Assembly (NCBI RefSeq): GCF_019059575.1
Contig: NW_024882709.1
Coordinates: 147,550 to 211,549 of the forward strand
Reading direction: 5' to 3'
Source of the DNA: Amphibalanus amphitrite
Taxonomy: Eukaryota; Arthropoda; Thecostraca; Balanomorpha; Balanidae
Length of the DNA stretch: 64,000 nucleotides
Each line of letters begins with the position of its first letter. Positions within the stretch are counted from its first letter, which is position 1. The notes below the pieces were generated by a model. The model was not told where the DNA came from. It saw only the letters and a list, made by a program, of their open reading frames with translations, and did no database searches. Both the position numbers and the translations under genes were made by a program. Positions 23,655 to 46,298 of this stretch are shown here, one piece after another.

Positions 23655-25910
23655 ATCCTAATCGGACCATATTTGGCAAAGTTGTGGACATATTGCGTTT
23701 TGCGGCATAAATGGCGCATTGGACAAGGGTGGTGCATTGCGGCAAACGCGGCGCATTGTTATTGTCGTTAGAGCATGCATCATAACGCCAAATCGCATCC
23801 TTATCGGATCATGTTCGACAAAGTTATGGACACTTCTCGACTTGCGGCGTAAATGGCGCATTGTGACAAATGTGGCGCATTGCGGCAAACGCGGTGCAGT
23901 TTTCCTTGTTGCTTAATAGTGCATCCATCCATCAAAATCTAGTCCAATCGGACCATAATTGACAAAGTTATGCGTATTTAGTATTTCGCTATGAAATATC
24001 TCCGCCACGAAGGTGCCCATCTTCGCACGTGTGCCACGTGACCACTGGTGGTGTAAGCAGGACTTGTCCCCTCGCCGGTTGCACCATTTCAGGCTTACTG
24101 ACTGGTGCTGTTTTCGTGCTATAACGCCACAAATCGGCAAACACACGATAATCTGGGAGGTACTCGAATCAAACACGTGGCCACGTGGCACGTGCCGGAC
24201 CTTTGATAGCTTCACCGTTCACGCCACGTGATGACCCATCGACGTGGCCATCAGCATATAAAAGATGACCCCGGCCGGTGTCACCGTCCCTGAACAGTGG
24301 ACGGGTAAACTCGAAAAACGGGAAAATTTAGGGAAATTTCACCTTTCGAATATATAATTTCCCCAGAATTTTGAATTTTTCATTTTACAAAAAAACCGAG
24401 ATAGCAGTTTTTTAGGCCCCTTCATTCTGTGCCTACACCCGTTTTCAGATCAACCCTATCATAAAATCTGACGGCCTGCCGGCTATTTCCCCCATTCCTT
24501 GCATTTCACAATGCTAGTATATTTAAGCACCAAAATTGACCCCGTGCCACGGCACGTGCAATAGCACGTGCGCCACGTGACCACTAGTGCGACAAGCTGG
24601 ACTCATCTGCTCACCGGCTGCGTTGATTTGGTGTCGCTAGGTGGAGTGGTTTTCACGCCATAGGACCCCCAGTTGGCCAATGTCGGATTTTCCCGGAGGT
24701 TACCCCATCAAACACGTTTGCACGTGGCACGTGCTTTTCAATCGCCCCATATCTGACCCATACCACGTGGTAGCCGACACCCCGGGGCACAACATATTGG
24801 AACTTTTTCAAAATCTAACGTGGAAATTTTTTGCAAAATCGATTTGAAAATAATTTTTCGAATTCGCCATAGGCTCAGCATGGGGTAACTGTCCTTAACG
24901 ATTACCCAAAATTTTGTCAATTATATTTTAAATGCTTACCACCATGAGGTGGGGTCCCGGCCCGGGAAGCGACCCTAAAAATATAATTCATTTCTAACGT
25001 GGAGTTTTTACGCAAATCGCATTTTAAATTTTCCCCCATGTTAACCCTATGGGGAAATGCACGTGCCGATTAGGCCCGGGCAGCGCTTGTCGAACAGCAC
25101 TGCGGATCCGAAGGTTGGGACTTTAATTGTGAAAAACCGCCCGCCCGCCGCCAAACGCAAACACCGCAAAACGCGCAAAACGCACGCCTAAAACGCCAAC
25201 GCAAACCTCGCAAAAAACAATCGCCCGCCCGCCGAAAACCGCGGAAAAACGCACAAAATGCCGCAAAAAAACGCGCGTCCGCCGCAAAACACAAACACCG
25301 CAAAAAACGCAAACACCGCCGCCGCAAAAAAAAACGCCCGCATCGCCCGCCGCCAACCGCGAAACGCCGCAAAAAACGTCCGCACGCCGCAAACCGCAAA
25401 ACGCCGCAAAAACGGCCGCCCGCCGCAAACCGCTAAACGCCGCAAAAAACGACCGCCCGCCGCCCGCCGCTAACCGCAAATAACGGCCAGCCGCCAAAAA
25501 CCGCAAAACGCCGTAAAAAACGGCCGCCCGCAGCAAACCACAAAACGCCGCAAAAAACGGCCGCCCGCCGCAAACCGCAAAACGCCGCAAAAAACGGCCT
25601 CCCGCCGCAAACCGCCGCTAAAACGGCCGCCCGCCGCCAAACGCAAACAGCAAAAACACCCGCATCGCCCGCCCGCCCGCCGCCAAACACAAAAACCGCA
25701 AAAAAACGCAAACACCGCCGCAAAAAAAAAAACGCCCGCAACGCACGCACGCCCGCCGCCAACCGCAAAACGCGGCAAAAAAAACGGCCGCCCGCCGCCA
25801 AACGCAAACACCGCCAAAAACGCAAAAACGGCCGCCCGCCGTCAAACGCAAACCCCGAAAAAAACGCAAACACCGCGGCAAAAAACGCCCGCCGTAGGCA
25901 AAACGCTAAC
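23655..25910. repeat. Macrosatellite unit 1
   Basis: This is the most diverged unit at its left edge. I counted 13 CACGTG sites between 24026 and 25065. TATAAAA is intact at 24257-24263. The foldback cassette is reduced to a single GGATCCGAAGGTTGGGACTT arm. The T-poor block spans about 25131-25905. Confidence 0.9.
24020..24300 (+). promoter_or_regulatory. E-box cluster with TATA box, unit 1 (putative promoter)
   Basis: Two CACGTG sites at 24026-24041, three packed at 24175-24196 and one at 24217 precede TATAAAA at 24257, with TCACCGTCCCTGAACAG about 25 bases downstream where an initiator would lie. This is the geometry of an RNA polymerase II core promoter with bHLH-type sites. TATAAAA is also intact in unit 2 (26460-26466) and unit 3 (28884-28890), but reads TGTAAAA in units 4-8. 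Transcription is inference. Confidence 0.4.
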
Positions 25911-28333
25911 ACTGACGCATTAAGACAAATATGGCGCCCTGCGGCAAATGTGGTGCATTCATATATGCCGTTTAAGCAGCCATCCCTTAATTACAGCGCA
26001 TCCTAATCGTCCAATGTTCGACAAAGTTACGCACATTCTGCGCTTTGCGGCAAAAATGGCGCTTTGAGACAAACGTGGCGCACTGCAACAAACATGGCGC
26101 ATTCGTTCATGTCGCTTAACAATTCATCCACCCACCAAATTCTAGCCCAATCGGACCATATTTGACAAAGTTATGCACATTTAATATTTTGCTATGAAAT
26201 ATCTCCGCAACGGAGGTGCCCAGATTTGCACGTGTGCCACGTGACCACCGGTGGTGCAAGCAGGACTTGTCCCCTCACTGATTGCACCATTTCAGTGTTC
26301 CTGGCTTGTGCTGTTTTCGTGCTATAAGGCCACAAATCGGCAAACACACGATAATCTGGGAGGTACGCGACTCAAACACGTGGCCACGTGGCACGTGCCG
26401 GACCTTTGATAGCTTCAGCGTTCACGCCACGTGATGACCACTCAACGTGGCCATCAGCATATAAAAGATGACCCCGGCCGGTGTCACCGTCCCTGAACAG
26501 TGGACGGGTAAACTCGAAAAACGGGAAAATTTAGGGAAATTTCACCTTTCGAATATATAATTTCCCCAGAATTTTGAATTTTTCATTTTACAAAAAATCC
26601 GAGATAGCAATTTTTTAGCCCCTTTCATTTTGTGTCTAGATCCGTTTTCAGATCGACCTTATCATAAAAATTGACGGCCTGACGGCTATTTCCCCCATTC
26701 CTTGCATTTCACAATGCTAGTATATTTAAGCACCAAAATTGACCCCGTGCCACGGCACGTGCAATAGCACGTGCGCCACGTGACCACTAGTGCGACAAGC
26801 TGAACTCATCTGCTCACCGGCTGCGTTGATTTGGTGTCGCTAGGTGGAGTGGTTTCCGCGCCATAGAACCCCAAATAGGCCAATGTCGGATTTTCCCGGA
26901 GGTTACCCCATCAAACACGTTTGCACGTGGCACGTGCTTTTCAATCGCCCCATATCTGACCCATACCATGTGGTAGCCGACACTCCGGGGCACAACATAT
27001 TGGAACATTTTCAAAATCTAACGTGGAAATTTTTGGCAAAATCGATTTGAAAATATTTTTTCGAAATCGCCATAGGCTCAACATGGGGTAAATGTCCCTC
27101 CCGATTACCCGAAATTTTGTCATTTATATTTTAAATAAACACCACCATGAGGTGGGGTCCCGGCCCTAGATTCGACCCTAAAAATATAATTCAATTCTAA
27201 CGTGGAGTTTTTGCGCAAATCGCATTTTAAATTTTCCCCCATGTTAACCCTATGGGGAAATGCACGTGCCGATTACCCCAAAACGTGTCAATTATATTTT
27301 TTGCAACTTTGCCAGAAGGTAGCTCCCCGATACGGGACCAAACGCTGAAAATGGCAAAAAATTCTACCGTGCCGTTTTGGCCCCAATCAAAATGTCCAAA
27401 ATCGCGGCAGAAACGCTAAACACCCCCCTAGAGAGGTAGCTCAGGTTGGGATTTTCAATAGAAAATCACAATTCTAAAGAATAGTGATTGTCCCTATTGA
27501 AAAGTCCCAACCTTCGGATACCCCAAAACGTGTCAATTATATTTTTTGCAACTTTGCCGGAAGGTAGCTCCCCGATAGGCCCGGGCAGCGCTTGTCGAAC
27601 AGCACTGCGGATCCGAAGGTTGGGACTTTAATTGTGAAAAACCGCCCGCCCGCCGCAAAACCGCAAAACGCGCAAAACGCACGCCCAAAACGCCAACGCA
27701 AACTCCGCAAAAAAATCGCCCGCCCGCCGAAAACCGCAGAAAAAACGCAAAAAAAAAACGCCGCCAAAAACCGCCCGTCCGCCGCAAAACGCAAACGCCG
27801 CAAAAACGCAAACACCGCCGCCGCAAAAAGAAACCGCATCGCCCGCCTCCAACGGCGAAACGCCGCAAAAAACGGCCGCCCGCTGCAAACCGCAACACCG
27901 CAAAGAACGCCCGGCCGCCGGCAACCGCAAAACGCGGCAAAAAAAACGGCCGCCCGCCGCAAACCACAAAAAACGCCGCAAAAAACGGCCGCCCGCCGCA
28001 AACCGCAAAACGCCGCAAAAACGGCCGCCCGCCGCAAATCGCAAAACGCCGCAAAAAAACGGCCGCCCGCCGCAAACCGCCGCCCGCCGCAAACCGCCGC
28101 TAAAACGGCCGCCCGCCGTCAAACGCAAACACCGCAAAAACACCCGCATCGCCCGTCCGCCCGCCGCCAAACACAAAAACCGCAAAAAACGCAAACACCG
28201 CCGCAAAAAACGCACGCACGCCCGCCGCCAACCGCAAAACGCCGCAAAAAAAACGTCCGCCCGCCGCCAAACGCAAACACCGAAAAACGCAAACACCGCC
28301 GCAAAAAACGCCCGCCGTAGGCAAAACGCAAAC
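25911..28333. repeat. Macrosatellite unit 2
   Basis: TATAAAA is intact at 26460-26466. A full foldback lies at about 27432-27525, followed by a repeat of the GTGTCAATTATATTTTTTGC segment before the T-poor block at 27636-28330. Confidence 0.9.
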
Positions 28334-30958
28334 ACTGACGCATTAAGACAAATATGGCGCCCTGAGGCAAATGTGGTGCATTCATATCTGCCGTTTAAGC
28401 AGCCATTCCTTAATTACAGCGCATCCTAATCGTCCAATGTTCGACAAAGTTACGCACATTCTGCGCTTTGCGGCAAAAATGGCGCTTTTAGACAAACGTG
28501 GCGCACTGCAACAAACATGGCGCATTCGTTTCTGTCGCTTAACAATTCGTCCACCCACCAAATTCTAGTCCAATCGGACATAAACTGATAAAGTTATGTT
28601 TATTTGAATATTTCACCATAAAATATCTCCGCAACGGAGGTGCCCGGAATTGCACGTGTGCCACGTGACCACCGGTGGTGTAAGCAGGACTTGTCCCCTC
28701 ACTGATTGCACCATTTCAGGCTTTTTAACTGGTGTAGTTTACGTGCTATAAGGCCACAAATCGGACAACACACGATAATCTGGGAGGTACGCGACTCAAA
28801 CACGTGGCCACGTGGCACGTGCCGGACCTTTGATAGCTTCACCGCTTACGCCACGTGATGACCCATCGACGTGGCCATCAGCATATAAAAGATGACCCCG
28901 GCCGGTGTCACCGTCCCTGAACAGTCGACGGCTAAACTCGAAAAACGGGAAAATCTAGGGAAATTTCACCTTTCGAATATATAATTTCCCCAGAATTTTA
29001 AATTTTTCATTTTACAAAAAATCCGAGATAGCAGTTTTTTAGACCCCTTCATTTTGTGTCTATACCCGTTTTCAGATCGACCCTATCATAAAAACTGACG
29101 GCCTGACGGCCATTTCCCCCATTCCTTGCATTTCACATTGTTGGTGTATTTAAGCACAAAAATTGACCTCGTGCCACGGCACGTGCAATAGCACGTGCGC
29201 CACGTGACCACTAGTGCGACAAGCTGGACTCATCTGCTCACCGGCTGCGTTGATTTGGTGTCGCTAGGTGGAGTCGTTTCCGCGCCATAGAACCCCAAAT
29301 AGGCCAATGTCGGATTTTCCACGAGGTTCCCCCATCAAACACGTTTGCACGTGGCACGTGCTTTTCAATCGCCCCATATCTGACCCATACCATGTGGTAG
29401 CCGACACCCCGGGGCACAACATATTGGAACATTTTCAAAATCTAACGTGGAAATTTTTTGCAAAATCGATTTGAAAATAATTTTTCGAAATCGCCATAGG
29501 CTCAACATGGGGTAACTGTTCGTCACGATTACCCGAAATTTTGTCATTTATATTTTAAATGCTTACCACCATGAGGTGGGGTCCCGGCCCGGGAAGCGAC
29601 CCTAAAAATATGATTCATTTCTAACGTGGAGTTTTTACGCAAATCGCATTTTAAATTTTACCCCATGTTAACCCTATGGGGAAATGCACGTGCCGATTAC
29701 CCCAAAACGTGTCAATTATATTTTTTGCAACTTTGCCGGAAGGTAGCTCCCCGATACGGGACCAAACGCTGAAAATAGCAAGAAATTCTACCGTGCCGTT
29801 TTTGCCCCAATCAAAATGTCCCAAATCGCGGCAGAAACGCTAAACACCCCCCTAGAGAGGTAGCTCAGGTTGGGATTTTCAATAGAAAATCACAATTCTA
29901 AAGAATAGTGATTGTTCTTAATTGAAAAGTCCCAACCTTCGGATACGGGACCAAACGCTGAAAATAGCAAGAAATTCTACCGTGCCGTTTTTGCCCCAAT
30001 CAAAATGTCCAAAATCGCGGCAGAAACGCTAAACACCCCCCTAGAGAGGTAGCTCAGGTTGGGATTTTCAATAGAAAATCACAATTCTAAAGAATAGTGA
30101 TTGTTCTTAATTGAAAAGTCCCAACCTTCGGATAGGCCCGGGCAGCGCTTATCGAACAGCACTGCGGATCCGAAGGTTGGGACTTTAATTGTGAAAAACC
30201 GCCCGCCCGCCGCAAAACGCAAACACCGCAAAACGCGCAAAACGCGCGCCCAAAACGCCAACGCAAATGCCGCAAAAAAAAAAAATCGCCCGCCCGCCGA
30301 AAACCGCAGAAAAAAAACGCACAAAATGCCGCAAAAAACGCGCGTCCGCCGCAAAACGCAAACACCGCAAAAACGCAAAGACCGCCGCCGCAAAAAAACG
30401 CCCGCATCGCCCGCCGCCAACCGCGAAACGCCGCAAAAAAACGGCCGCACGCCGCGAACCGCAAAACGCCGCAAAAACGGCCGCCCGCCGCAAACCGCTA
30501 AACGCCGCAAAAAACGACCGCCCGCCGCCCGCCGCTAACCGCAAATAACGGCCGGCCGCCGGCAACCGCAAAACGCCGTAAAAAAACGGCCGCCCACCGC
30601 AAACCACAAAACGGCCGCCCGCCGCAAACCGCGAAACGCCGCAAAAAAACGTCCGCCCGCCGCAAACCGCCGCTAAAACGGCCGCCCGCCGCCAAACGCA
30701 AACAGCAAAAACACCCGCATCGCCCGCCCGCCCGCCGCCAAACACAAAAACCGCAAAAAACGCAAACACCGCCGCAAAAAAAAACGCCCGCAACGCACGC
30801 ACGCCCGCCGCCAACCGCAAAACGCCGCAAAAACGGCCGCCCGCCGCCAAACGCAAACACCGCCAAAAACGCAAAAACGGCCGCCCGCCGTCAAACGCAA
30901 ACACCGAAGAAACGCAAACACCGCCGCAAAAAACGCCCGCCGTAGGCAAAAAGCAAAC
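28334..30958. repeat. Macrosatellite unit 3 (longest, foldback duplicated)
   Basis: TATAAAA is intact at 28884-28890. The segment from ACGGGACCAAACGCTG through the foldback is tandemly duplicated (29755-29945 and 29944-30137), which explains the extra length. The T-poor block is 30193-30955 and nearly identical to that of unit 4. Confidence 0.9.
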
Positions 30959-33389
30959 ACTGACGCATTAAGACAAATATGGCGCCCTGCGGCAAATGTG
31001 GTGCATTCATATCTGCCGTTTAAGCAGCCATCCCTTAATTACAGCGCATCCTAATCGTACAATGTTCGACTAAGTTACGCACATTCTGCGCTTTGCGGCA
31101 AAAATGGCGCTTTGAGACAAACGTGGCGCACTGCAACAAACATGGCGCATTCGTTCATGTCGCTTAACAATTCATCCACCCACCAAATTCTAGCCCAATC
31201 AGACTTAAACTTACAAAGTTATGTACATTTGAATATTTCACTATAAAATATCTCCGCAACGGAGGTGCCCAGATTTGCACGTGTGCCACGTGACCAGCGG
31301 TGGTGAAAGCAGGACTTGTCCCCTCACCGATTGCACCATTTCAGTGTTCCTGGCTTGTGCTGTTTTCGTGTTATAAGGCAACAAATCGGCAAACACACGA
31401 TAATCTGGGAGGTACGCGACTCAAACACGTGGCCACGTGGCACGTGCCGGACCTTTGATAGCTTCACCGTTCACGCCACGTGATGACCCATCGACGTGGC
31501 CATCAGCATGTAAAATATGACCCCGGCCGGTGTCACCGTCCCTAAACAGTGGAAGGCTAAACTCGAAAAACGGGAAAATTTAGGGAAATTTCACCTTTCG
31601 AATATATAATTTCCCCATAATTTTAAATTTTTCATTTTACAAAAAATCCGAGATAGCAGTTTCCTAGCCTCCTTCATTCTGTGTCTATAGCCGTTTTCAG
31701 ATCGACCCTATCATAAAAACCGACGGCCTGACGGCTATTTCCCCCATTCCTTGCATTTCACAATGCTAGTATATTTAAGCACCGAAATTGACCCCGTGCC
31801 ACTGCACGTGCAATAGCACGTGCGCCACGTGACCACTAGTGCGACAAGCTGGACTCATCTGCTCACCGAATGCGTTGATTTTGTGTCGCTAGGTGGAGTG
31901 GTTTCCACGCCATAGGACCCCCAGTTGGCCAATGTCGGATTTTCCCGGAGGTTACCCCATCAAACACGTTTGCACGTGGCACGTGCTTTTCAATCGCCCC
32001 ATATCTGACCCATACCATGTGGTAGCCGACAACCCGGGGCACAACATATTTAAACATTTTCAAAATCTAACGTGGAATTTTTTTACAAAATCGATTTGAA
32101 AATAATTTTTCGAAATCGCCATAGGCTTAGCATGGGGTAACTGTCCGTCCCGATTACCCGAAATTTTGTCATTTATATTTTAAATAATTACCACCATAAG
32201 GTGGGGTCCCGGCCCGAGATTCGACCCTAAAAATATAATCCATTTCTAACGTGGAGTTTTTCCGCAAATCGCATTTTAAATTTTTCCCCATGTTAACCCT
32301 ATGGGAAAATGCACGTGCCGATTACCCCAAAACGTGTCAATTATATTTTTTGCAACTTTGCCAGAAGGTAGCTCCCCGATACGGGACCAAACGCTGAAAA
32401 TGGCAACAAATTCTACCGTGCCGTTTTCGCGGGGATCAAAATGTCCCAATTTCCGGCAGAAACGCAAATGTCCCCCTAGAGAGGTAGCTCAGGTTGGGAT
32501 TTTCAATAGAAAATCACAATTCTAAAGAATAGTGATTGTCTTATTGAAAAGTCCCAACCTTCGGATAGGCCCGGGCAGCGCTTATCGAACAGCACTGCGG
32601 ATCCGAAGGTTGGGACTTTAATTGTGAAAAACCGCCCGCCCGCCGCAAAACGCAAACACCGCAAAACGCGCAAAACGCGCGCCCAAAACGCCAACGCAAA
32701 TGCCGCAAAAAAAAAATCGCCCGCCCGCCGAAAACCGCAGAAAAAAAACGCACAAAATGCCGCAAAAAACGCGCGTCCGCCGCAAAACGCAAACACCGCA
32801 AAAACGCAAAGACCGCCGCCGCAAAAAAAACGCCCGCATCGCCCGCCGCCAACCGCGAAACGCCGCAAAAAAAACGGCCGCACGCCGCGAACCGCAAAAC
32901 GCCGCAAAAACGGCCGCCCGCCGCAAACCGCTAAACGCCGCAAAAAACGACCGCCCGCCGCCCGCCGCTAACCGCAAATAACGGCCGGCCGCCGGCAACC
33001 GCAAAACGCCGTAAAAAAACGGCCGCCCACCGCAAACCACAAAACGGCCGCCCGCCGCAAACCGCGAAACGCCGCAAAAAACGTCCGCCCGCCGCAAACC
33101 GCCGCTAAAACGGCCGCCCGCCGCCAAACGCAAACAGCAAAAACACCCGCATCGCCCGCCCGCCCGCCGCCAAACACAAAAACCGCAAAAAACGCAAACA
33201 CCGCCGCAAAAAAAACGCCCGCAACGCACGCACGCCCGCCGCCAACCGCAAAACGCCGCAAAAACGGCCGCCCGCCGCCAAACGCAAACACCGCCAAAAA
33301 CGCAAAAACGGCCGCCCGCCGTCAAACGCAAACACCGAAGAAACGCAAACACCGCCGCAAAAAACGCCCGCCGTAGGCAAAAAGCAAAC
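30959..33389. repeat. Macrosatellite unit 4
   Basis: The TATA site reads TGTAAAA at about 31508. The foldback is at 32492-32570 and the T-poor block at 32625-33386. The first about 1.6 kb is practically identical to the start of unit 5 at a constant offset of 2431. Confidence 0.9.
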
Positions 33390-35725
33390 ACTGACGCATT
33401 AAGACAAATATGGCGCCCTGCGGCAAATGTGGTGCATTCATATCTGCCGTTTAAGCAGCCATCCCTTAATTACAGCGCATCCTAATCGTACAATGTTCGA
33501 CTAAGTTACGCACATTCTGCGCTTTGCGGCAAAAATGGCGCTTTGAGACAAACGTGGCGCACTGCAACAAACATGGCGCATTCGTTCATGTCGCTTAACA
33601 ATTCATCCACCCACCAAATTCTAGCCCAATCAGACTTAAACTTACAAAGTTATGTACATTTGAATATTTCACTATAAAATATCTCCGCAACGGAGGTGCC
33701 CAGATTTGCACGTGTGCCACGTGACCAGCGGTGGTGAAAGCAGGACTTGTCCCCTCACCGATTGCACCATTTCAGTGTTCCTGGCTTGTGCTGTTTTCGT
33801 GTTATAAGGCAACAAATCGGCAAACACACGATAATCTGGGAGGTACGCGACTCAAACACGTGGCCACGTGGCACGTGCCGGACCTTTGATAGCTTCACCG
33901 TTCACGCTACGTGATGACCCATCGACGTGGCCATCAGCATGTAAAATATGACCCCGGCCGGTGTCACCGTCCCTAAACAGTGGAAGGCTAAACTCGAAAA
34001 ACGGGAAAATTTAGGGAAATTTCACCTTTCGAATATATAATTTCCCCATAATTTTAAATTTTTCATTTTACAAAAAATCCGAGATAGCAGTTTCCTAGCC
34101 TCCTTCATTCTGTGTCTATAGCCGTTTTCAGATCGACCCTATCATAAAAACCGACGGCCTGACGGCTATTTCCCCCATTCCTTGCATTTCACAATGCTAG
34201 TATATTTAAGCACCGAAATTGACCCCGTGCCACTGCACGTGCAATAGCACGTGCGCCACGTGACCACTAGTGCGACAAGCTGGACTCATCTGCTCACCGA
34301 ATGCGTTGATTTTGTGTCGCTAGGTGGAGTGGTTTCCACGCCATAGGACCCCCAGTTGGCCAATGTCGGATTTTCCCGGAGGTTACCCCATCAAACACGT
34401 TTGCACGTGGCACGTGCTTTTCAATCGCCCCATATCTGACCCATACCATGTGGTAGCCGACAACCCGGGGCACAACATATTTAAACATTTTCAAAATCTA
34501 ACGTGGAATTTTTTTACAAAATCGATTTGAAAATAATTTTTCGAAATCGCCATAGGCTTAGCATGGGGTAACTGTCCGTCCCGATTACCCGAAATTTTGT
34601 CATTTATATTTTAAATAATTACCACCATAAGGTGGGGTCCCGGCCCGAGATTCGACCCTAAAAATATAATCCATTTCTAACGTGGAGTTTTTCCGCAAAT
34701 CGCATTTTAAATTTTTCCCCATGTTAACCCTATGGGAAAATGCACGTGCCGATTACCCCAAAACGTGTCAATTATATTTTTTGCAACTTTGCCAGAAGGT
34801 AGCTCCCCGATACGGGACCAAACGCTGAAAATGGCAACAAATTCTACCGTGCCGTTTTCGCGGGGATCAAAATGTCCCAATTTCCGGCAGAAACGCAAAT
34901 GTCCCCCTAGAGAGGTAGCTCAGGTTGGGATTTTCAATAGAAAATCACAATTCTAAAGAATAGTGATTGTCTTATTGAAAAGTCCCAACCTTCGGATAGG
35001 CCCGGGCAGCGCTTGTCGAACAGCACTGCGGATCCGAAGGTTGGGACTTTAATTGTGAAAAACCGCCCGCCCGCCGCAAAACGCAAAACCGCAAAACGCG
35101 CAAAACGCACGCGCAAAACGCCAACGCAAACTTCGCGAAAAAAAAACAATCGCCCGCCCGCCAAAAACCGCAGAAAAAAACTAAAAAAACGCCGCCAAAA
35201 ACCGCCCGTCCGCCGCAAAACGCAAACACCGCAAAAACGCAAACACCGCCGCCGCAAAAAGAAACCGCGTCGCCCGCCGCCAACCGCGAAACATCGCAAA
35301 AAAACGGCCGCCCGCCGCAAACCGCAACACCGCAAATAACGGCCGGCCGCCGGCAACCGCAAAATGCCGCAAAAAACGGCCGCCCACCGCAAACCGCAAA
35401 ACGCCGCAAAAAAACGGCCGCCCGCCGCAAACCGCCGCAAAAAACGGCCGCCCGACGCCAAACGCAAACACCGCAAAAACACCCGCATCGCCCGCCCGCC
35501 CGCCGCCAAACACAAACACCGCAAAAAACGCAAACACCGCCGCAAAAAAACGCCCGCATCGCACGCCCGCCCGCCTCCAACCGCAAACCGCCGCAAAAAA
35601 AACGGCCGCCCGCCGCGAAACGCAAACACCACAAAAAAACGCAAAAACGGACGCCCGTCGCAAACGCAAACACAAAAAACGCAAACACCGCCGCAAAAAA
35701 CGCACGCCGTCCGCAAAACGCAAAC
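33390..35725. repeat. Macrosatellite unit 5
   Basis: The first about 1.6 kb matches unit 4 almost base for base, then the T-poor block (35057-35722) switches to a different, shorter version. This places a crossover near 34990. The TATA site reads TGTAAAA. Confidence 0.9.
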
Positions 35726-38055
35726 ACTGACGCATTAAGACAAATATGGCGCCTTGCGGCAAGTGTGGTGCATTCATATCTGCTGTTTAAGCAACCAACC
35801 CTCCATCAGCGCATCGTAATCGTCCCATGTTCGATAAAGTTACGCACATTCTGTGATTTTCGGCAAAAATGGCGCTTTGAGACAAACGTGGCGCACTGCG
35901 ACAAACGTAACGCATTCGTGCCTGTCGCTTAACAATTCATCCACCCACCAAAGTCTAGCCCAATCGGACTTAAACTGACAAAGTTATGTTCATTTGAATA
36001 TTTCACTATAAAATATCTCCGCAACGGAGGTGCCCAAATTTGCACGTGTGCCACGTGACCGCCGGTGGTGTAAGCAGGACTTGTCCCCTCACTGATTGCA
36101 CCATTTCAGTGTTCCTGGCTTGTGCTGTTTTCGTGCTATAAGGCCACAAATCGGCAAACACACGATAATCTGGGAGGTACGCGACTCAAACACGTGGCCA
36201 CGTGGCACGTGCCGGACCTCTGATAGCTTCACCGTTCACGCCACGTGATGACCCATCGACGTGGCCATCAGCATGTAAAAGATGACCCCGGCCGGTGTCA
36301 CCGTCTCTGAACAGTGGACGGCTAAACTCGAAAAACGGGAAAATTTAGGGAAATTTCACCTTTCGAATATATAATTTCCCCAGAATTTTAAATTTTTCAT
36401 TTCACAAAAAATCAGAGATAGCAGTTTTTTAGCCCCCTTCATTCTGTGCCTATACCCGTTTTCAGATCGACCCTATCATAAAAACTGACGGTCTGACGGC
36501 CATTTCCCCCATTCCTTGCATTTCAAAATGCTAGTATATTTAAGCACCAAAATTGACCCCGTGCCACGGCACGTGCAATAGCACGTGCGCCACGTTACCA
36601 CTAGTGCGACAAGCTGAACTCATCTGCTCACCGGCTGCGCTGATTTGGTGTCGCTAGGTGGAGTGGTTTCCACGCCATAGGACCCCCAGTTGCCCAATGT
36701 CGGATTTTCCCGGAGGTTACCCCATCAAACACGTTTGCACGTGGCACGTGCTTTTCAATCGCCCCATATCTAACCCATACCATGCGGTAGCCGACACCCC
36801 GGTGCACAACATATTGGAACTTTTTCAAAATCTAACGTGGAAATTTTTGGCAAAATTGATTTGAAAATAATTTTTCGAAATCGCCATAGGCTCAGCATGG
36901 GGTAACTGTCCGTCAAGATTACCCGAAATTGTATCCTATGATTTTTAAATAATTAACACCAAAAGTTGAGGTGCCAGCCCTAGATCCGACCCTAAAAATA
37001 TCAGCAAATATAATTGACGAAATTTTTCGCAAATCGAATTTTAAATTTTTCCCCATGTTAACCCTATGGGAAAATGCACGTGCCGATTACCCCAAAACGT
37101 GTCAATTATATTTTTTGTAACTTTGCCACAAGGTAGCTCCCCGATACGGGACCAAACGCTGAAAATGGCAAGAAATATAATGGAGCCGTTTTCGCGGGGA
37201 TCAAAATGTCCAAAATCGCGGCAGAAACGCTAAACACCCCCCTAGAGAGGTAGCTCAGGTTGGGATTTTCAATAGAAAATCACAATTCTACTCTGCGGAT
37301 CCGAAGGTTGGGACTTTAATTGTGAAAAACCGCCCGCCCGCCGCCAAACGCAAACACCGCAAAACGCACACCCAAAACGCAAACGCAAACTTCGCAAAAA
37401 AAAACAACCGCCCGCCCGCCGAAAACCGCAGAAAAAAACGCAAAAAACGCCGCAAAAAAACGCCCGCCAGCCGCAAACCGCAACAACGCAAATAACGCCC
37501 GGCCGCCGTCAACCGCAAACGCCGCAAAAAAAACGGCCGCCCGCCGCAAACCACAAAAAAACGCCGCAAAAAACGGCCGCCCGCTGCAAACCGCCGCTAA
37601 AACGGCCGCCCGCCGCAAACCGCTAAACGCCGCAAAAAACGGCCGCCCGCCGCCCGCCGCTAACCGCAAATAACGGCCGCCCGCCGCAAACCACAAAACG
37701 CCGCAAAAAACGGCCGCCCGCCGCAAACCGCAAAACGCCGCAAAAAACGGCCGCCCGCCGCAAACCGCCGCCAAAACTTCCGCACGCCGCCAAACGCAAA
37801 CAGAAAAAACACCCGCATCGCCCGCCCGCCCGCCGCCAAACACAAAAACCGCAAAAAACGCAAACACCACCGCAAAAAACGCCTGCAACGCACGCACGCC
37901 CGCCGCCAACCGCAAACCGCTGCAAAAAACGGCCGCCCGCCGCCAAACGCAAACACCGCCAAAAACGCAAAAACGGCCGCCCGCCGTCAAACGCAAACAC
38001 CGAAAAAAACGCAAACACCGCCGCAAAAAACGCCCGCCGTAGGCAAAACGCAAAC
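35726..38055. repeat. Macrosatellite unit 6
   Basis: The TATA site reads TGTAAAA at about 36273. The foldback is truncated after its first arm at about 37290 and joins directly to CTGCGGATCCGAAGGTTGGG. The T-poor block is 37322-38052. Confidence 0.9.
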
Positions 38056-40436
38056 ACTGACGCATTAAGACAAATATGGCTCCCTGCGGCAAATGTGGTG
38101 CATTCATATCTGCCGTTTAAGCAGCCATCTCTTAATTACAGCGCATCCTAATCGTCCAATGTTCGACAAAGTTACGCACATTCTGCGCTTTGCGGCAAAA
38201 ATGGCGCTTTGAGACAAACGTGGCGCACTGCAACAAACATGGCGCATTCGTTCATGTCGCTTAACAATTCATCCACCCACCAAATTCTAGCCCAATCGGA
38301 CTTAAACTGAAAAAGTTATGTACATTTCAATATTTCACTATAAAATATCTCCGCAACGGAGGTGCCCATCTTCGCACGTGTGCCACGTAACCACTGGTGG
38401 TGTAAGCAGGACTTGTCCCCTCGCCGGTTGCACCATTTCAGGCTTCCTGACTGGTGCTGTTTTCGTGCTATAACGCCACAAATCGACAAACACACGATAA
38501 TCTGGGAGGTACGCGACTCAAACACGTGGCCACGTGGCACTTGCCGGACCTCTGATAGCTTCACCGTTCACGTCACGTGATGACACATCGACGTGGCCAT
38601 TAGCATGTAAAAGATGACCCCGGCCGGTGTCACCGTCCCTGAACAGTGGACAGCTAAACTCGAAAAACGGGAAAATTTAGGGAAATTTCACCTTTCGAAT
38701 ATATCATTTCCCCAGAATTTTAAATTTTTCATTTAAAAAAAAATCCGAGATAGCCGTTTTTTAGGCCCCTTCATTCTGTGCCTACACCCGTTTTCAGATC
38801 GACCCTATCATAAAATCTGACGGCCTGACGGCTATTTCCCCCATTCCTTGCATTTCACAATGCTAGTATATTTAAGCACCAAAATTGACCCCGTGCCACG
38901 GCACGTGCAATAGCACGTGCGCCACGTGACCACTAGTGCGACAAGCTGGACTCATCTGCTCACCGGCTGCGTTGATTTGGTGTCGCTAGGTGAAGTGGTT
39001 TCCACGCCATAGGACCCCCAGTTGGCCAATGTCGGATTTTCCCGGAGGTTACCCCATCAAACACGTTTGCACGTGGCACGTGCTTTTCAATCGCCCCATA
39101 TCTGACCCATACCACGTGGTAGCCGACACCCCGGTGCACAACATATTGGAACTTTTTCCAAATCTAACGTGGAATTTTTTTGCAAAATCGATTTTAAAAT
39201 AATTTTTCGAAATTGCCATAGGCTCAACATGGGGTAACTGTTTGTGACAATTACCCGAAATTTTGTCAATTATATTTTAAATAATTACCACCGTCAGTTG
39301 GGGTGCCATCCCGAGATCCGACCCTAAAAATATCAGCAAATATAATTGACGAAATTTTTCGCAAATCGAATTTCCAATTTTCCCCCATGTTAACCCTATG
39401 GGAAAATGCACGTGCCGATTACCCCAAAACGGGTTAATTATATTTCAAGCGACCGATGCCAGCCGGTAGCTCCCCGATACGGGACCAAACGCTGAAAATG
39501 GCAAGAAAGTTTACCGTGCCGTTTTCTTCCCTGTCAAAATGTCCTAAATCGCGGCCGAAACGCTAAACACCCCCCTAGAGAGGTAGCTCAGGTTGGGATT
39601 TTCAATAGAAAATCACAATTCTAAAGAATAGTGATTGTCTAATTGAAAAGTCCCAACCTTCGGATATCGAACAGCACTGCGGATCCGAAGGTTGGGACTT
39701 GAATTGTGAAAAACCGCCCGCCCGCCGCCAAACGCAAACACCGCAAAACGCACGCCCAAAACGCAAACGCAAACTTCGCAAAAAAACAATCGACCGCCCG
39801 CCGAAAACCGCAGAAAAAAACGCAAAAAACGCCGCAAAAAAACGCTCGTCCGCCGCAAAACGCAAACACCGCAAAAAACGCAAACACCGCCGCCACAAAA
39901 AACGCCCGCATCGCCCGCCGCCAACGGCGAAACGCCGCAAAAAACGGCCGCCTGCCGCAAACCGCAACAACGCAAATAACGCCCGGCCGCCGGCAACCGC
40001 AAAACGCCGCAAAAAACGGCCGCCCGCCGCAAACCACAAAAAACGCTACAAAAAACGGCCGCCCGCCGCAAACCGCAAAACGCCGCAAAAAACGACCGCC
40101 CGCCGCAAACCGCAAAACGCCGCAAAAAACGGCCGCCCACCGCAAACCGCCGCTAAAACGGCCGCCCGCCGCCAAACGCAAACACCGCAAAAACACCCGC
40201 ATCGCCCGCCCGCCCGCCGCCAAACACAAAAACCGCAAAAAACGCAAATACCGCCGAAAAAACGCCCGCACCGCACGCCCGCCCGCCGCCAACCGCAAAC
40301 CGCCGCAAAAAACGGCCGCCCGCCGCGAAACGCAAACACCACAAAAAAACGCAAAAACGGCCGCCCGCCGCCAAACGCAAACACAAAAAACGCAAACACC
40401 GCCGCAAAAAAAGCACGCCGTCCGCAAAACGCGAAC
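38056..40436. repeat. Macrosatellite unit 7
   Basis: The TATA site reads TGTAAAA at about 38606. A full foldback lies at 39589-39668 and the T-poor block at 39706-40433. Confidence 0.9.
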
Positions 40437-42783
40437 ACTGACGCATTAAGACAAATATGGCGCCTTGCGGCAAGTGTGGTGCATTCATATCTGCTGTTTA
40501 AGCAACCAACCCTCCATCAGCGCATCCTAATCGTCCCATGTTCGACAAAGTTACGCACATTCTGCGCTTTGCGGCAAAAATGGCGCTTTGAGACAAACGT
40601 GGCGCACTGCAACGAACTTGGCGCATTCGTTCCTGTCGCTTAACAATTCGTCCACCCATTAAATTCTAGCCCAATCGGACATAAACTGACAAAGTTATGT
40701 TTATTTGAATATTTCACTATAAAATATCTCCGCAACGGAGGTGCCCAGATTTGCACGTGTGCCACGTGACCACCGGTGGTGTAAACAGGACTTGTCCCCT
40801 CACCGACTGACCCAATTTAGTGTTCTTGGCTGGTTCTGTTTCCACGCTATACGGCCACCAGTTGGCCAAAACACCAATATGTGGGAGGTACTTGGCTCAA
40901 ACACGTGGCCACGTGGCACGTGCCGGACCTCTGACAGCTTAACGGCTCACGCCACGTCATGACCAATACAAGTGGCCATCGGCATGTAAAAGACGACCCC
41001 GGCCGGTGTCACCGTCTCTGAACAGTGGACGGCTAAACTTGAAAAACGGGAAAATTTAGGGAAATTTCACCTTTCGAATATATAATTTCCCTAGAATTTT
41101 AAATTTTTCATTTTACAAAAAATCCGAGATAGCAGTTTTCTAGCACCCTTCATTCTGTGTCCATACCCGTTTTCAGATCGACCCTATCATAAAAACTGAC
41201 GGTCTGACGGCTATTTCCCCCATTCCTTGCATTTTACAATGTTGGAGCATTTAAGCACAAAAATCGACCCCGTGCCACGGCACGTGCAGTAGCACGTGCG
41301 CCACGTGACCACCAGTGCTACAAGCTGGACTCATCTGCTCACCGGCTGCACTGGTTTAGTGTCGCTAGATGAAGTCGTTTCCGCGCCATAGGACCCCCAG
41401 TTGGCCAATGTCGGATTTTCCCGGAGGTTACCCCATCAAACACGTTTGCACGTGGCACGTGCTTTTCAATCGCCCCATATCTGACCCATACCACGTGGTA
41501 GCCGACACCCTGGGGCACAACATGTTGGAACAATTTCAAAATCTAACGTGGAAATTTTTTGCAAAATCGATTTGAAAATATTTTTTCGAAATTGCAATAG
41601 GCTCAACATGGGGTAACTGTCTGTGCCAATTACCCGAAAGTTCTCTAATTATATTTTAAACGGTTACCACCGACGGGTGGGGTGCCAGCCCAAGAACTGA
41701 CCCTAAAAAAGTGGACAAATATTACTGAACAGATTTTGCGCAAATCGCATTTTAAATTTTTCCCCATGTTAACCCTATGGGAAAATGCACGTGCCGATTA
41801 CCCCAAAACGTGTCAATTATATTTCTTGTAACTTTGCCAGCAGGTAGCTCCCCCACACGGGACCAAACGGTGAAAATGGCAAGAAAATCTAACGAGCCGT
41901 TTTCGAGGGTATCAAGATGACCCAAATCGCGGCCGAAACGCTAAACACCCCCCTAGAGAGGTAGCTCAGGTTGGGATTTTCAATAGAAAATCACAATTCT
42001 AAAGAATAGTGATTGTCTAATTGAAAAGTCCCAACCTTCGGATATGCGGATCCGAAGGTTGGGACTTTAATTGTGAAAAACCGCCCGCCCGCCGCAAAAC
42101 GCAAACACCGCAAAACGCGGAAAACGCACGCCCAAAACGCCAACGCAAATGCCGCAAAAAAACAAAAAAATCGCCCGCCCGCCGAAAACCGCAGAAAAAA
42201 TCAAAAAACGCCGCAAAAAATCAAACCGCCCGCATCGCACGCCAAAAAACGCCCGTCCGCCGCAAAACGCGAACACCGCAAAAAAAACGCAAACACCGCC
42301 GCCGCAAAAAAAAACGCCCGCTGCCAACCGCAAAAAACGGCCGCCCGCCGCTAACCGCAAAACGCCGCAAAAAACGGCCGCCCGCCGCTAACCGCAAAAC
42401 GCCGCAAAAAAACGGCCGCCCGCCGGCAACCGCAAAACGCTGCAAAAAACGGCCGCCTGACGCAAACCGCAAAACACCGCAAAAAACGGCCGCCCGCCGG
42501 CAACCGCAAACCGCAAAAAGGCGCCCGCCTCAAACCGCCGCAAAAAACGGCCGCCCGCCGCAAACCGCCGCCCGCCGCCGAACACCGCAAAAACGCAAAT
42601 ACCGCCGCAAAAAACGCCCGCCCGCCGCCAACCGCAAAACGCCGCAAAAACGGCCGCCCGCCGCGAAACGCAAACACCACAAAAAAAACGGAAAAAACGC
42701 CCGCCCGCCACCAAATGCAAACACCAAAAAAAAAACCGCAAACACCGCCGCAAAAAAAAACACGCCGTCCGCAAAACGTAAAC
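40437..42783. repeat. Macrosatellite unit 8
   Basis: This is the most diverged unit in the E-box zone (several substitutions around 40800-41000). The TATA site reads TGTAAAA at about 40985. The foldback is at 41965-42045 and the T-poor block at 42074-42780. Confidence 0.9.
41965..42066. repeat. Foldback cassette at the satellite block boundary (representative copy)
   Basis: AGGTTGGGATTTTCAAT with ATCACAATTCT pairs with AGAATAGTGAT and ATTGAAAAGTCCCAACCT to form a stem of about 30 bp. Its right arm, CCCAACCTTCGGAT, can alternatively pair with ATCCGAAGGTTGGG just downstream, so two hairpins compete. Full copies lie at about 27432, 29870, 30055, 32492, 34923 and 39589; a half copy lies at 37255. 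Confidence 0.85.
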
Positions 42784-42990
42784 ACTGACCTATTAAGACA
42801 AATATGGCGCCGTGCGGGAAGTGTGGTGCATTCATTTCTGCCGTTAAAGCAGCCACCCTCAATCAAAGCGCATCCTCGGATTTTCCACGAGGTTCCCCCA
42901 TCAAACACGTTTCCATGTGGCACGTGCTTTTCAATCGCCCCATATCTGACCCATACCAGCTGCCGGACATTGGTCACGTGACCACATTTT
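42784..42990. repeat. Truncated ninth satellite unit
   Basis: The unit start (AAGACAAATATGGCGCC) runs to GCGCATCC and then jumps to TCGGATTTTCCACGAGG, skipping roughly 900 bp that the other units have between those points. It ends near 42960 after TGACCCATACCA. This is the right edge of the array. Confidence 0.85.
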
Positions 42991-43390
42991 CCGTGTGACC
43001 TTGAGTTGGCACCAGATTTTGTCGACAGATGTGGCGCAGCTTATTTTACTGCATTATTTTAGATACTAAATATTTAGACGTGTGGTGGTAAATGATACCG
43101 TGCAAATACTATTGAATCATCGGTGACATAGTTACCATTGAAACTTGAATAGCATCAATAAAATACAATTAAACTATTATTAATCTTTCATTGATTTTAT
43201 TGTGTTTGCAGGCATAGGTAGAAACTGAAGAGCTGAGCCTGCAGCTTACAGTTGTTCTAAACTTTATGCATGAATCAAGGCTACTGAGGGCTGCAAATTT
43301 GTTCCACTTATCTTTAATAACTTATACCCTACCTTCATCAACCATTATCTGTAAGAATCTTGCATCAATCATCACCAGACTTATAAGTTT
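42991..43390. other. AT-rich stretch, nothing recognised
   Basis: No gene, RNA or repeat structure is seen apart from short AT-rich runs. Confidence 0.6.
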
Positions 43391-44240
43391 TTTTTACATA
43401 CCTTCGCCCCGGCCGCGAGAGTGGGGGGGTACGACTCCCTCGCCCTAATTGAGCTAGCCTGGCGGAAAAAACAAGCATGTGTACTGTTACGGGACCGCCG
43501 ACGCAGTGATTTATGCACGGTTTAAAAGTCTCAGGTCAACTAATTGCCTCTGAGGGTCAGGTCAAGTGCCCCGAGGGCCAAAATACGATTTCGGGTTTTG
43601 AAAAATAACTTTGCCAAAAAACGGCGCTGAATCGCGATTTTAGTACCATCATGTTTGTCATGCTCCGGTGCGTCAAATAGTACACTTTTGTTTGGGTGGG
43701 GTCAACATAAGGTGTTCACATCGGGTCAAAGTCAGGTCAAAGGCACTCAGGTCACGAAGTTGGTCGGAGGAGGTTATATCGTATATCATTCGATTCGGTA
43801 GGTCTTCCCGAGTCCATTGGCGACTTTTCCGACTTGCCAGTTCAATTTTATCAGGAGTTATTGACGAAAAAACTTGTGACCTTTGTGACGTCATAAATGA
43901 CGTCACGCTAGGTTAAAGATGCAAAAGTGAAGCATTGGACATTGCAAGAAGTGCATGAAATTGCGATTCCACGTGCTTGAGCTAGGTTTAGATCATTCTC
44001 GGCGTCAAAATTACAGTTTCCATATTTTCCCCATTGACTTGTAATGGTGACGTCACGCGATCGGCCTGACCTCATGTGACCTCTAGGAGAAATCCTAGAT
44101 ATACAAGTTTTGAGACTTCTGGAGGATACTAGGTCCTGTGAGTATCATCTCGCTGAGACAGCTCCTCTGGCACCGAGGGCATAGCGAAGTTTCGGTATTT
44201 TGGGACTATTGCAGAGGTTCACGTGTGACGTCATAAGTCA
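43390..44240. repeat. AGGTCA-rich dispersed repeat (pairs with 62860-63640)
   Basis: The stretch is collinear with 62860-63640: a G-run with GTACGAC, AATAACTTYGCCAAAAA, AGGTCACGAAGTTGGTCG, CATATCATTCGATTCGG, GTCATAAATGACGTCACG and CCCCATTGACTTRTAATGGTG occur in the same order. AGGTCA half-sites occur in several orientations. No coding frame is shared between the two copies. Confidence 0.8.
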
Positions 44241-45554
44241 GTGATCTGACCTGAAACGGAAATGCAGTTGGTTTCCAAAGATGCGTATGGAAGCAAAGAT
44301 AAGGTGTGCTAAATAGCAGCCCTCTGGCTGTAAGGTGTTTTGAGCTATCGCCAAAAGTCGTCAGTGGAGCGCTACTGACTCCTCCGGTCGGCCGCCGGGG
44401 GTTAGGAGGCGTGCAGGGTATCGGAAAACCACCTGGTACTTAGCGAATTTTGCCGATAAAAATACGTTTCTTATGCTGACGTATAGCCAAAAGACGACTG
44501 AATCTCAAACCAGTCGTATCCTTGCACTAAATGGCTTGGTTTAGACACGATAGGTCTGAAAAGAAAAGGTCCCATGTAATCTCTATGGGCGCCGCGAGGC
44601 CGTTGGCACCAGAGTTTCGGGAAGTGCCCTCGCCACAACCGCACGTGCAGATTTGGTCACGTGACCAAGCGCATTTGCCGCCACTGTATTTATATACACT
44701 GTGACCCATACCATGTGGTAGCCGTATAAAAATGTCTTATTGTATTGCCCGGCAACGGTCTGTCCTGGCACGTGGCATAATTTTGGAGATAGGTATATCC
44801 TGTATGCTATTTTCGTGTAGTAATGAATAGGTACAACAAACACTAAGAATAGCTTGAGATAGCGGGATACGTTTAGTGAGATGGTTGCGTGCGAGAGTTA
44901 TTTTTAACAACAATTAGCTGCTAGAAACGTGCTGGGTATCAACAATTATCAAGCGTCCAGAAGTCTCATTATAAAGCGCAATACAAGTCGTACATTTATG
45001 ATCGTATGAGACGTTCTGCATTGATCTTATAACCACTTTTCAAACAGACAAAATAGCAACTAAAAAAGTAATTATGCAGCGAACTATGTGAACTTCATTC
45101 GACGTCAGGCAACCATCTCTCCGGGGGCGCCACGAGGAGGCATCCCACAGTGTGGCATATCGGCAAACACAGATCTGCTGTAGCAGGTGAATATTATTTA
45201 CCCTGCCGATGGCATTGGCAGCAATAGCCGATATTCCCACTGTCCGCCCCCATAAATTTTGCCTGTGGCAATGCAAGCCACTCCATTCATTATGAATGGT
45301 TTACCTTATTGTTCAACATCAAAACTAATAATGGGTCAGCTACTCAGGACGAGTCAGCAGCACCTAGCCTTACGTAGCATACATTGCTTTTTTGCGAATA
45401 GTTGATGAATGCGTCTATAGCTTCAATTTAAAATTGGACGCCATTTACCCCAAGAAAAACTTGCGAAAAGTTTGCTGAATGGATGCCAATGAGATAGGTC
45501 ATTAGAACGCTTCTTTGAAGTTTCAGATTTAGACATTGCAGCCACTAAAAACGG
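44241..45554. other. Unassigned stretch with a stray satellite fragment
   Basis: At about 44698-44725 the words GTGACCCATACCATGTGG and TAGCCG are a fragment of the macrosatellite middle, about 1.7 kb outside the array. CACGTG also occurs at about 44641, 44657 and 44769. Otherwise I see no gene or clear repeat. Confidence 0.5.
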
Positions 45555-46290: not shown

Positions 46291-46298
46291 ATGTGACT

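What the first reader, a model, noticed from the sequence alone, without database searches (positions are those of the whole stretch)
23655..42990. E-box-dense macrosatellite: about 13 CACGTG sites per unit
In unit 1, 13 CACGTG palindromes occur where about 0.6 is expected by chance, and most are kept in the other seven units; the word CACGTGGCCACGTGGCACGT packs three sites in 21 bases. An array of roughly a hundred sites could titrate bHLH factors, seed chromatin, or act as a tandem promoter array.
Basis: partly seen in the sequence, partly recalled or inferred. Interest (0 to 1): 0.8.

Follow-up and report, generated by a model that had tools for sequence, protein, structure and literature searches.

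The report
Tandem jumping genes packed with E-boxes
The repeated block is a head-to-tail row of a non-coding jumping gene that also sits alone elsewhere in the genome, and its CACGTG sites, shared with a second, otherwise unlike and far more abundant jumping gene, change more slowly than the DNA around them, which suggests the elements need a protein that reads that word.

Summary
In detail: 96 CACGTG lie in 23655-42990 against 5.2 expected. The interpretation needs changing. The "macrosatellite" is a head-to-tail row of a 2.4 kb non-coding element that also occurs singly: 7 of 16 fetched loci hold one end to end, three of those without a single substitution between them, so it moved recently. 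Its triple-E-box word has 849 exact places in the 807 Mb genome. The ends (17-bp subterminal inverted repeats, a hairpin near one end, an internal minisatellite) resemble non-autonomous Helentrons (HINEs). A second HINE-like family, without detectable homology outside the sites, carries CACGTG doublets; its 18-bp palindrome TGCACGTGCGCACGTGCA occurs at 22,694 places. In both families CACGTG changes about 2-5 times more slowly than neighbouring bases. In family 1 shared mutations avoid the sites while private ones hardly do, pointing to selection on copies that spread; family 2 agrees less clearly. I infer that the sites are cis-acting parts of the transposons, read by a host bHLH factor or the element's own machinery. 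Binding was not testable; the empty-site search did not complete; no autonomous partner was identified. Array-level roles (titration, tandem promoter) lack support.

The parts
23655..25070 (-). Element copy 1, partial (E-box core and neighbouring subrepeats only, 13 CACGTG)
   Evidence: self-BLAST and core alignment; counts
25071..27521 (-). Element copy 2, complete: on the minus strand 5' TATCCGAAGG... (27521) to ...GGGCCTA 3' (25071)
   Evidence: same ends as 7 dispersed full-length copies of 2375-2409 bp
27522..27575 (-). Short extra piece repeating internal element sequence at the junction of copies 2 and 3
27576..29946 (-). Element copy 3 (12 CACGTG, counted together with the following duplication)
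   Evidence: junction words at 27576 and 29927-29945
29947..30132 (-). Second copy of the 5'-terminal 189 bp of the element (tandem duplication, 99% matches)
   Evidence: TRF
30133..32565 (-). Element copy 4; direct ...GGGCCTA|TCCGAAGG... junctions at both ends
32566..34996 (-). Element copy 5, 0.1% diverged from copy 4 in the core (recent duplication)
34997..37290 (-). Element copy 6, 5' end truncated at the junction with copy 7
37291..39666 (-). Element copy 7, 3'-terminal hairpin missing
   Evidence: no TAGGCCCGGGCAGCG at this junction
39667..42044 (-). Element copy 8, 3'-terminal hairpin truncated
42045..42958 (-). Element copy 9, fragment without the 3' hairpin: minisatellite, then an 83-bp piece of block B (42876-42958)
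25071..25123 (-). 3' end of copy 2: subterminal inverted repeat AAGTCCCAACCTTCGGA, hairpin, then about 6-9 nt to the end
   Evidence: sequence; predicted fold of this end
27437..27521 (-). 5' end of copy 2: TCCGAAGGTTGGGACTT subterminal inverted repeat inside a long hairpin
   Evidence: words; a typed 5' end (dispersed copy continued with window letters) folds at -22.4 kcal/mol
25282..25870 (-). Internal C/A-rich minisatellite of copy 2 (about 37-nt unit); similar arrays in copies 3 to 9
   Evidence: TRF; skew
26229..26433 (.). E-box block A of copy 2 (6 CACGTG; gaps 3, 2 and 1 bp)
26756..26936 (.). E-box block B of copy 2 (5 CACGTG; gaps 6 and 3, then 1 bp), an old duplicate of block A
27263..27268 (.). 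Last E-box of the core; this site is exact in 26 of 26 copies that reach it
44642..44774 (.). Separate small E-box block outside the array (3 CACGTG), sharing the 23-mer TGACCCATACCATGTGGTAGCCG (44702-44724) with block B of copy 2
   Evidence: density

Best explanation
Shown: 23655-42958 is a head-to-tail row of copies (one partial, seven complete or nearly so, one fragment) of a 2.4 kb non-coding element that also exists as single insertions elsewhere, three of which are so alike that they must be recent. It has, on the minus strand, an end structure like that of non-autonomous Helentrons (HINEs, rolling-circle transposons). A second HINE-like family, without detectable homology outside the sites, carries the same kind of CACGTG doublets at high copy number, and in both families CACGTG is kept better than neighbouring sequence. 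Inferred: the row arose when rolling-circle replication ran past the element's 3' end (which would also give inner copies without the 3' hairpin) and/or by unequal crossing-over. Inferred: the E-boxes are cis-acting parts of the transposons, bound by a host bHLH factor or by an element-encoded protein, and copies with intact sites were the ones that spread, for example by being opened, transcribed or replicated in the germ line. The array is a by-product, not a machine of its own.
For: Full-length single copies with the same ends in different flanks, 2375-2409 bp, 7 of 16 loci fetched; L010, L011 and L014, on three contigs, differ by 0 substitutions and 3-7 gap bases over 2.4 kb, other pairs are 92-94% identical. 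849 exact places of the triple-E-box 20-mer, reversed control 0; one of the best-conserved site-free 20-mers has 721 (one word each, difference not tested). Ends: 17-bp subterminal inverted repeats, hairpins, internal minisatellite, compared with passages on HINEs in PMC4067079 and PMC7492417. Three of the array's junctions lack or truncate the 3' hairpin, as PMC7492417 says of inner tandem copies. Constraint, family 1: 28 copies, 9 sites not used to find them, 1.2% change against 3.2% within 15 bp, 4.2% within 60 bp, 5.1% elsewhere; CpG inside sites 1.0%, outside 6.6%; resampling p 0.002 and 0.0001. Family 2: 29 copies not chosen by its sites, 3.7% against 19.7% elsewhere and 16.3% within 15 bp; 34 of 36 further copies, selecting palindrome masked, 36 of 888 positions (4.1%) against 8.5%. 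Families 1 and 2 with sites masked: score 14, shuffled mean 13.1, maximum 20; yet they share TTTGCACGTGGCACGTGC. Family 1 shared mutations avoid the sites (3 in 54 bp against 329 in 1240 bp, p 0.0004); private ones hardly do (12 against 334, p 0.31).
Against: No binding data. No autonomous element with these ends was found. Within 15 bp the array alone gives only p 0.020, and some site-free stretches are as well conserved. In family 2 private mutations also avoid the sites (ratio 0.54, p 0.037; 0.32, p 0.0007 in array-borne copies), and in the window array too (ratio 0.43, p 0.048); that fits host selection or gene conversion better than selection on spreading copies alone. In the 34 family 2 copies CpG inside sites is only modestly better kept than outside (6.1% against 9.3%), and two sites are weak (12 of 17 and 22 of 29 exact). 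Copies in arrays are not independent. Target-site duplication was not settled: TA precedes the 5' end in 6 of 7 and follows the 3' end in 7 of 7 family 1 copies, so a TA duplication is not excluded. Gaps of 1-2 bp are not among the CLOCK:BMAL1 spacings in the passages read of PMC12424780.
Confidence: 0.6

Rival explanations
1. The E-boxes have no function: both transposons inherited or amplified short CACGTG-containing words, and the apparent constraint reflects subfamily structure, concerted evolution and chance.
For: Array copies are not independent (copies 4 and 5 differ by 0.1%). Some site-free stretches are as conserved. Private mutations hit family 1 sites at near background rate.
Against: Two families without other detectable homology share the doublet arrangement and an 18-mer. 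Between two family 2 consensus sequences 0 of 42 site positions differ against 79 of 521 others (p 0.0013). Blocks A and B, about 66% alike, keep 4 of the 5 words of the aligned stretch; the sites help to drive that alignment, but with sites masked it still scores 31 against at most 19 in 500 shuffles.
Confidence: 0.25
2. Host function: the arrays and dispersed copies were co-opted as bHLH platforms (insulator, enhancer, decoy or chromatin nucleator), and the host keeps the sites in each copy.
For: Family 2 sites resist private mutations too, as do the window array's (ratio 0.43, p 0.048). Block B gaps of 6 and 3 bp, intact in 24 of 28 copies, match CLOCK:BMAL1 spacings reported on nucleosomes (PMC12424780 passages). 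Mouse RSINE1 is a precedent for E-box-carrying elements (PMC8240256 passages).
Against: The sheer number of copies makes selection on each one implausible (inference). Family 1 private mutations are not significantly reduced over all 28 copies. The TATA-like word is degenerate in 23 of 28 copies.
Confidence: 0.2
3. A cut-and-paste DNA transposon or foldback element rather than a rolling-circle one, inserted at TA with a TA duplication, tandemised by recombination.
For: TA lies before the 5' end of 6 of 7 and after the 3' end of 7 of 7 full-length copies, and three array junctions read CTTCGGA-TA-GGCCC.
Against: The inverted repeat is subterminal on one side, with a hairpin and a unique tail outside it. 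In the second family T follows the recognised 3' end in 26 of 26 loci, although that T could be the element's own last base and duplication was not tested there.
Confidence: 0.12
4. A true regulatory macrosatellite like DXZ4 that happens to have shed single copies.
For: Rows with about 2.4 kb spacing occur on several contigs in the capped list (C2, C18, C33, C80, C81, C103).
Against: Seven single copies start and stop at the same bases as array units, and three of them, on different contigs, have no substitution between them; shedding would not obviously give that.
Confidence: 0.04

Closest known systems
HINE / DINE-1 (non-autonomous Helentrons), Thomas et al. 2014, PMC4067079 (passages read)
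   Same: Non-coding, subterminal inverted repeats, hairpin near the 3' end (about 6-9 nt from it; published about 8-35), internal tandem repeats, high copy number; tandem clusters are reported there for Helitrons
   Different: Subterminal repeat 17 bp (published 12-15 in mites), its 3' copy about 36 nt from the end (published 38-60); TA rather than clear T-rich flanks in family 1; dense CACGTG arrays, a word pair (E-box) that one search counts 0 times in that paper
Cg_HINE satellite-carrying Helentrons of oyster, PMC7492417 (passages read)
   Same: Satellite-like repeats carried inside HINEs; tandem copies whose inner members often lose the 3' end
   Different: Here the whole element, not just its central repeat, makes the array; E-box content not mentioned in the passages read
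RSINE1 in mouse, PMC8240256 (passages read)
   Same: Interspersed elements that spread E-boxes through a genome
   Different: Near-miss E-boxes in its consensus, perfected after insertion; here exact CACGTG doublets are in the consensus and kept
ISX element of Drosophila miranda (start of abstract only, PMC4384637; that it derives from a Helitron is recalled)
   Same: A mobile element family that disperses many protein-binding sites
   Different: Dosage-compensation complex sites on a new X chromosome, 77 of them; here CACGTG and far more copies
DXZ4 / D4Z4 macrosatellites (recalled, and titles and abstract starts)
   Same: Kilobase-scale tandem units with repeated factor sites
   Different: Not dispersed mobile elements with fixed ends (recalled)

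Membership tests
HINE (non-autonomous Helentron) | Subterminal inverted repeats close to the 5' end and some tens of nt from the 3' end | tested here: met
   TCCGAAGGTTGGGACTT at the 5' end (one base changed in L013), its complement about 36 nt from the 3' end, in 7 full-length copies; slightly outside the published 38-60 nt
HINE (non-autonomous Helentron) | Hairpin near the 3' end (published about 8-35 nt from it) | tested here: met
   GCAGTGCTG..CAAGCGCTGC, 9 nt from the end by eye, 6 nt in the predicted fold
HINE (non-autonomous Helentron) | Tandem repeats inside (some copies), no coding capacity | tested here: met
   37-nt minisatellite; the frames of 120 codons or more in it are low-complexity (not searched against Pfam)
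HINE (non-autonomous Helentron) | T-rich target, no target-site duplication | tested here: inconclusive
   Family 1 has TA before the 5' end in 6 of 7 and after the 3' end in 7 of 7 copies; family 2 is followed by T in 26 of 26 loci with a recognised 3' end; the empty-site search did not complete
HINE (non-autonomous Helentron) | Autonomous partner with matching ends and Rep-helicase | tested here: inconclusive
   The window carries an OTU + PIF1-helicase ORF, but no Pfam model matched its middle and the element's subterminal word occurs in the window only in the array; a genome-wide partner search was not run
[quoted passage not shown]
   5 intact 3' ends and 3 lost or truncated
Classical satellite / macrosatellite | Exists as tandem arrays rather than dispersed units with fixed ends | tested here: not met
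   7 of 16 fetched loci hold one complete unit with the same ends in different flanks
CLOCK:BMAL1-type tandem E-box element | CACGTG pairs with 6-7 (or 3) bp between them | tested here: inconclusive
   Gaps 6 and 3 are intact in 24 of 28 copies, but 1- and 2-bp gaps are commoner
bHLH-bound element | Occupancy by a bHLH protein | not testable with these tools
   no binding data
Tandem Pol II promoter array | Conserved TATA-type core promoter in each unit | tested here: not met
   TATA word intact in 5 of 28 copies; TATA-less promoters not tested

The most novel reading that the evidence does not exclude
In this genome, rolling-circle transposons have independently come to depend on closely packed CACGTG doublets (gaps 1-3 and 6 bp) as a cis-acting requirement for spreading, read by a host bHLH protein or by their own replication protein as iterons. 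The result is a genome saturated with palindromic E-box doublets (22,694 places of one 18-bp word) on which the host's bHLH network must operate.
Probability: 0.35. Interest if true: 0.78.

Novelty: new variant of a known kind. Interest (0 to 1): 0.58.

Why it matters
It replaces a puzzling "E-box macrosatellite" with a recently mobile element and a testable idea: which internal sequences non-autonomous rolling-circle transposons need is poorly known (recalled), and here a six-base word is kept in two families without other detectable homology. If a host bHLH factor reads it, the transposons have spread tens of thousands of potential sites through the genome, with consequences for how that factor finds its real targets. 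If an element protein reads it, it is a rare handle on how such transposons are recognised.

Tried and rejected
Rejected: structured RNA or tRNA array (no Rfam match at gathering threshold; no tRNA). Coding unit (frames of 120 codons or more in the array are low-complexity, from the T-poor minisatellite; not searched against Pfam). TATA promoter array (word degenerate in 23 of 28 copies). CpG hypomutability as the cause in family 1 (CpG outside sites changes 6.6%, inside 1.0%). Relationship of families 1 and 2 (masked alignment at noise level). Relatives outside this genome: 0 in viral contigs; 1 chance match in a Streptomyces. The window's OTU/PIF1 element as autonomous partner: its ends do not show the array element's words.

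Weak or contrary results kept in view: the array alone within 15 bp of sites gives p 0.020; private mutations in family 2 and in the window array are also reduced; CpG in the 34 family 2 copies is only 6.1% against 9.3%; one family 2 site reads CCCGTG in 12 of 29 copies, others are exact in only 12 of 17 and 22 of 29; the 5' end word of family 2 was found in only 8 of the 26 loci with a 3' end.

Literature: searches were searched. One search (Helentron, E-box, transcription factor binding, Helitron; at least 3 of 4) listed 9 papers, none with both Helentron and E-box. Absence from that library under those terms is all I claim.
Full report
Observation. The count is right. 23655-42990 holds 96 CACGTG against 5.2 on average and at most 13 in 300 dinucleotide shuffles; the window has 107 against 15.3. 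In the eight cores 91 of 96 consensus sites are exact against 76% of other hexamers; sliding the site set along the core reached this in 8 of 1358 positions. Counting columns with a change on a tree of the units, 5 of 72 site columns vary against 33 of 188 within 15 bp (p 0.020), 125 of 593 within 60 bp (p 0.0017) and 338 of 1292 elsewhere (p 5e-5).

What the unit is. The window lies in an 807.55 Mb assembly of 2644 contigs. The triple-E-box 20-mer has 849 exact places there, none for the reversed control. In the capped list of places many are about 2.4 kb apart (tandem), others stand apart. Of 16 loci I fetched around places that looked isolated, 7 (L010, L011, L013, L014, L016, L019, L022) hold one complete unit, 2375-2409 bp, with the same ends and different flanks (a few flanks share short interspersed repeats further out). 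The others: L017 truncated, L021 interrupted, L025 tandem, and L012, L015, L018, L020, L023 and L024 with the E-box core (and in some the minisatellite) inside a longer E-box-rich repeat. L010, L011 and L014, on contigs C3, C8 and C45, have no substitution between them over 2.4 kb, only 3-7 gap bases, while other pairs of the seven are 92-94% identical. The unit is therefore a mobile element with recent activity, and the "macrosatellite" is a row of it.

Ends. Read on the minus strand the element begins TCCGAAGGTTGGGACTT within a long hairpin and ends AAGTCCCAACCTTCGGA, a hairpin, then CCGGGCCTA, with a C/A-rich minisatellite towards the 3' end. Passages of PMC4067079 give for mite HINEs subterminal inverted repeats of 12-15 bp, 38-60 nt from the 3' end, and a hairpin about 8-35 nt from it; here the values are 17 bp, about 36 nt and about 6-9 nt. 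[quoted passage not shown] In the window five 3' ends are intact (25071, 27576, 30133, 32566, 34997), three of them abutting the next copy directly as GGGCCTA|TCCGAAGG (30133, 32566, 34997), and three junctions (37290, 39664, 42042) lack or truncate the 3' end. TA precedes the 5' end in 6 of 7 full copies and follows the 3' end in 7 of 7, so a TA duplication is possible; the empty-site search that would decide did not complete. I call it HINE-like, not a proven HINE.

A second family. The longer repeats led to TGCACGTGCGCACGTGCA, an 18-bp palindrome with two E-boxes, at 22,694 places in the genome, reversed control 0. Ten loci around such places show an element of about 650 bp with doublets about 126-149 bp apart, inverted ACGGAGCGAGCGA repeats and a CGCCCCAAAAGGCG hairpin near one end. 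The 3' end was recognised in 26 of 36 loci and T follows in all 26 (it could be the element's own last base; L045 and L057 share flanks); the 5' end word was found in 8 of those 26. With sites masked, families 1 and 2 align no better than shuffled sequence (14 against a mean of 13.1, maximum 20 of 60 shuffles), yet share TTTGCACGTGGCACGTGC.

Constraint. Family 1: 33 hits reduced to 28 distinct copies (identical ones dropped); the three sites used to find the loci were set aside. The other nine change at 1.2% per position against 3.2% within 15 bp, 4.2% within 60 bp and 5.1% elsewhere; CpG inside sites 1.0%, outside 6.6%; nine random nearby hexamers do as well in 0.2% of draws, nine CpG-centred ones in 0.01%. 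Family 2: 29 copies lying in eight loci fetched for the family 1 word or next to it (pieces under 250 columns and overlaps dropped; several copies per locus, so not independent) change at 3.7% in sites, 16.3% within 15 bp and 19.7% outside, and no draw of 20,000 random hexamer sets does as well. Then 36 loci on contig C1 taken from the palindrome list (L064 left out as the same site as L037): in 34 of them (two too short), with the selecting palindrome masked, 36 of 888 site positions differ (4.1%) against 8.5% both near and elsewhere, CpG 6.1% against 9.3%, hexamers exact 88% against 66%. Between two family 2 consensus sequences 0 of 42 site positions and 79 of 521 others differ (p 0.0013). 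Genome-wide, one of the best-conserved site-free 20-mers of family 1 has 721 exact places, against 849 for the triple-E-box word (one word each).

Mode of selection. In family 1, mutations seen in one copy only hit sites almost as often as elsewhere (12 in 54 bp against 334 in 1240 bp, p 0.31), but mutations shared by copies avoid them (3 against 329, p 0.0004; 0 against 140, p 0.0026, in 11 copies outside the window, 7 of them from loci with a single unit or an interrupted one). That is what selection on spreading lineages would leave. Against this, in family 2 private changes are also reduced (ratio 0.54, p 0.037; 0.32, p 0.0007), and in the window array (0.43, p 0.048). I therefore favour a role in the elements' own spread, at moderate confidence, and keep host selection as a rival.

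Who reads the sites. Adjacent sites are mostly 1, 2, 3 or 6 bp apart (start distances 7: 105, 8: 73, 9: 55, 12: 32 in the own-genome loci then held and the window, some places counted twice). The 6+3 triple of block B is intact in 24 of 28 copies. PMC12424780 (a preprint, passages) reports CLOCK:BMAL1 preferring 6-7 bp, and 3 bp on nucleosomes, so block B would suit such a factor. The 1-2 bp doublets would not obviously hold two bHLH dimers (inference), which leaves room for one dimer per doublet or an element-encoded protein. Flanking G/C next to the core resembles Hairy/Hey-type sites (recalled).

Titration: about 100 sites here against tens of thousands genome-wide. Tandem promoter: TATA word intact in 5 of 28 copies. 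Centromere or chromatin role: not testable here.

Verdict. The array is a tandem cluster of a HINE-like transposon. What is unusual is that two HINE-like families without other detectable homology, one very abundant, keep CACGTG doublets against mutation. New variant of a known kind.

Noticed in passing
48061-57522 (-) and 1-7645: A 3153-codon open frame with an OTU protease domain and a PIF1-like helicase; 50470-58106 is 96% identical to 1-7645 (the left copy runs off the window and its frame was not examined). Perhaps an autonomous Helitron/Helentron on both sides of the array; no Pfam model matched its middle even at E 1.
   Followed up: partly
43390-44189 and 62856-63645: An interspersed repeat (75% identical copies, also matching L022 and L018) with several GGTCA half-sites and TGACGTCA words, a second repeat with transcription-factor-like words.
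   Followed up: partly
L010, L011, L014: Three single insertions of the 2.4 kb element on different contigs with 0 substitutions between them, so the family moved recently.
   Followed up: yes
19840-19918: Short interstitial (TAACC)n array, a rotation of the arthropod telomere repeat TTAGG (arthropod assignment recalled).
   Followed up: no
46007-46797: About 278-bp repeat rich in CGACTC; the same kind of word stands just inside the right-hand ends of the two Helitron-like copies.
   Followed up: no
19401-19827: Tandem palindromic GTGTAAATCACACC...GGTGTGATTTACAC repeat.
   Followed up: no
L015, L012, L018, L020, L023, L024, L026: Large composite E-box-rich repeats; in L012, L015, L018, L020, L023 and L024 the family 1 core, family 2 modules and, at least in L015, a third repeat with GTGGCACGTGGCACGTGCG lie close together.
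   Followed up: partly
G000 contig C80 about 869-997 kb: A long row of family 1 units that switches from the plus to the minus strand near 939-943 kb, so the array is arranged as two opposed halves.
   Followed up: no
18199-19345 and 60902-62025: An 84% identical repeat pair on either side of the array.
   Followed up: no
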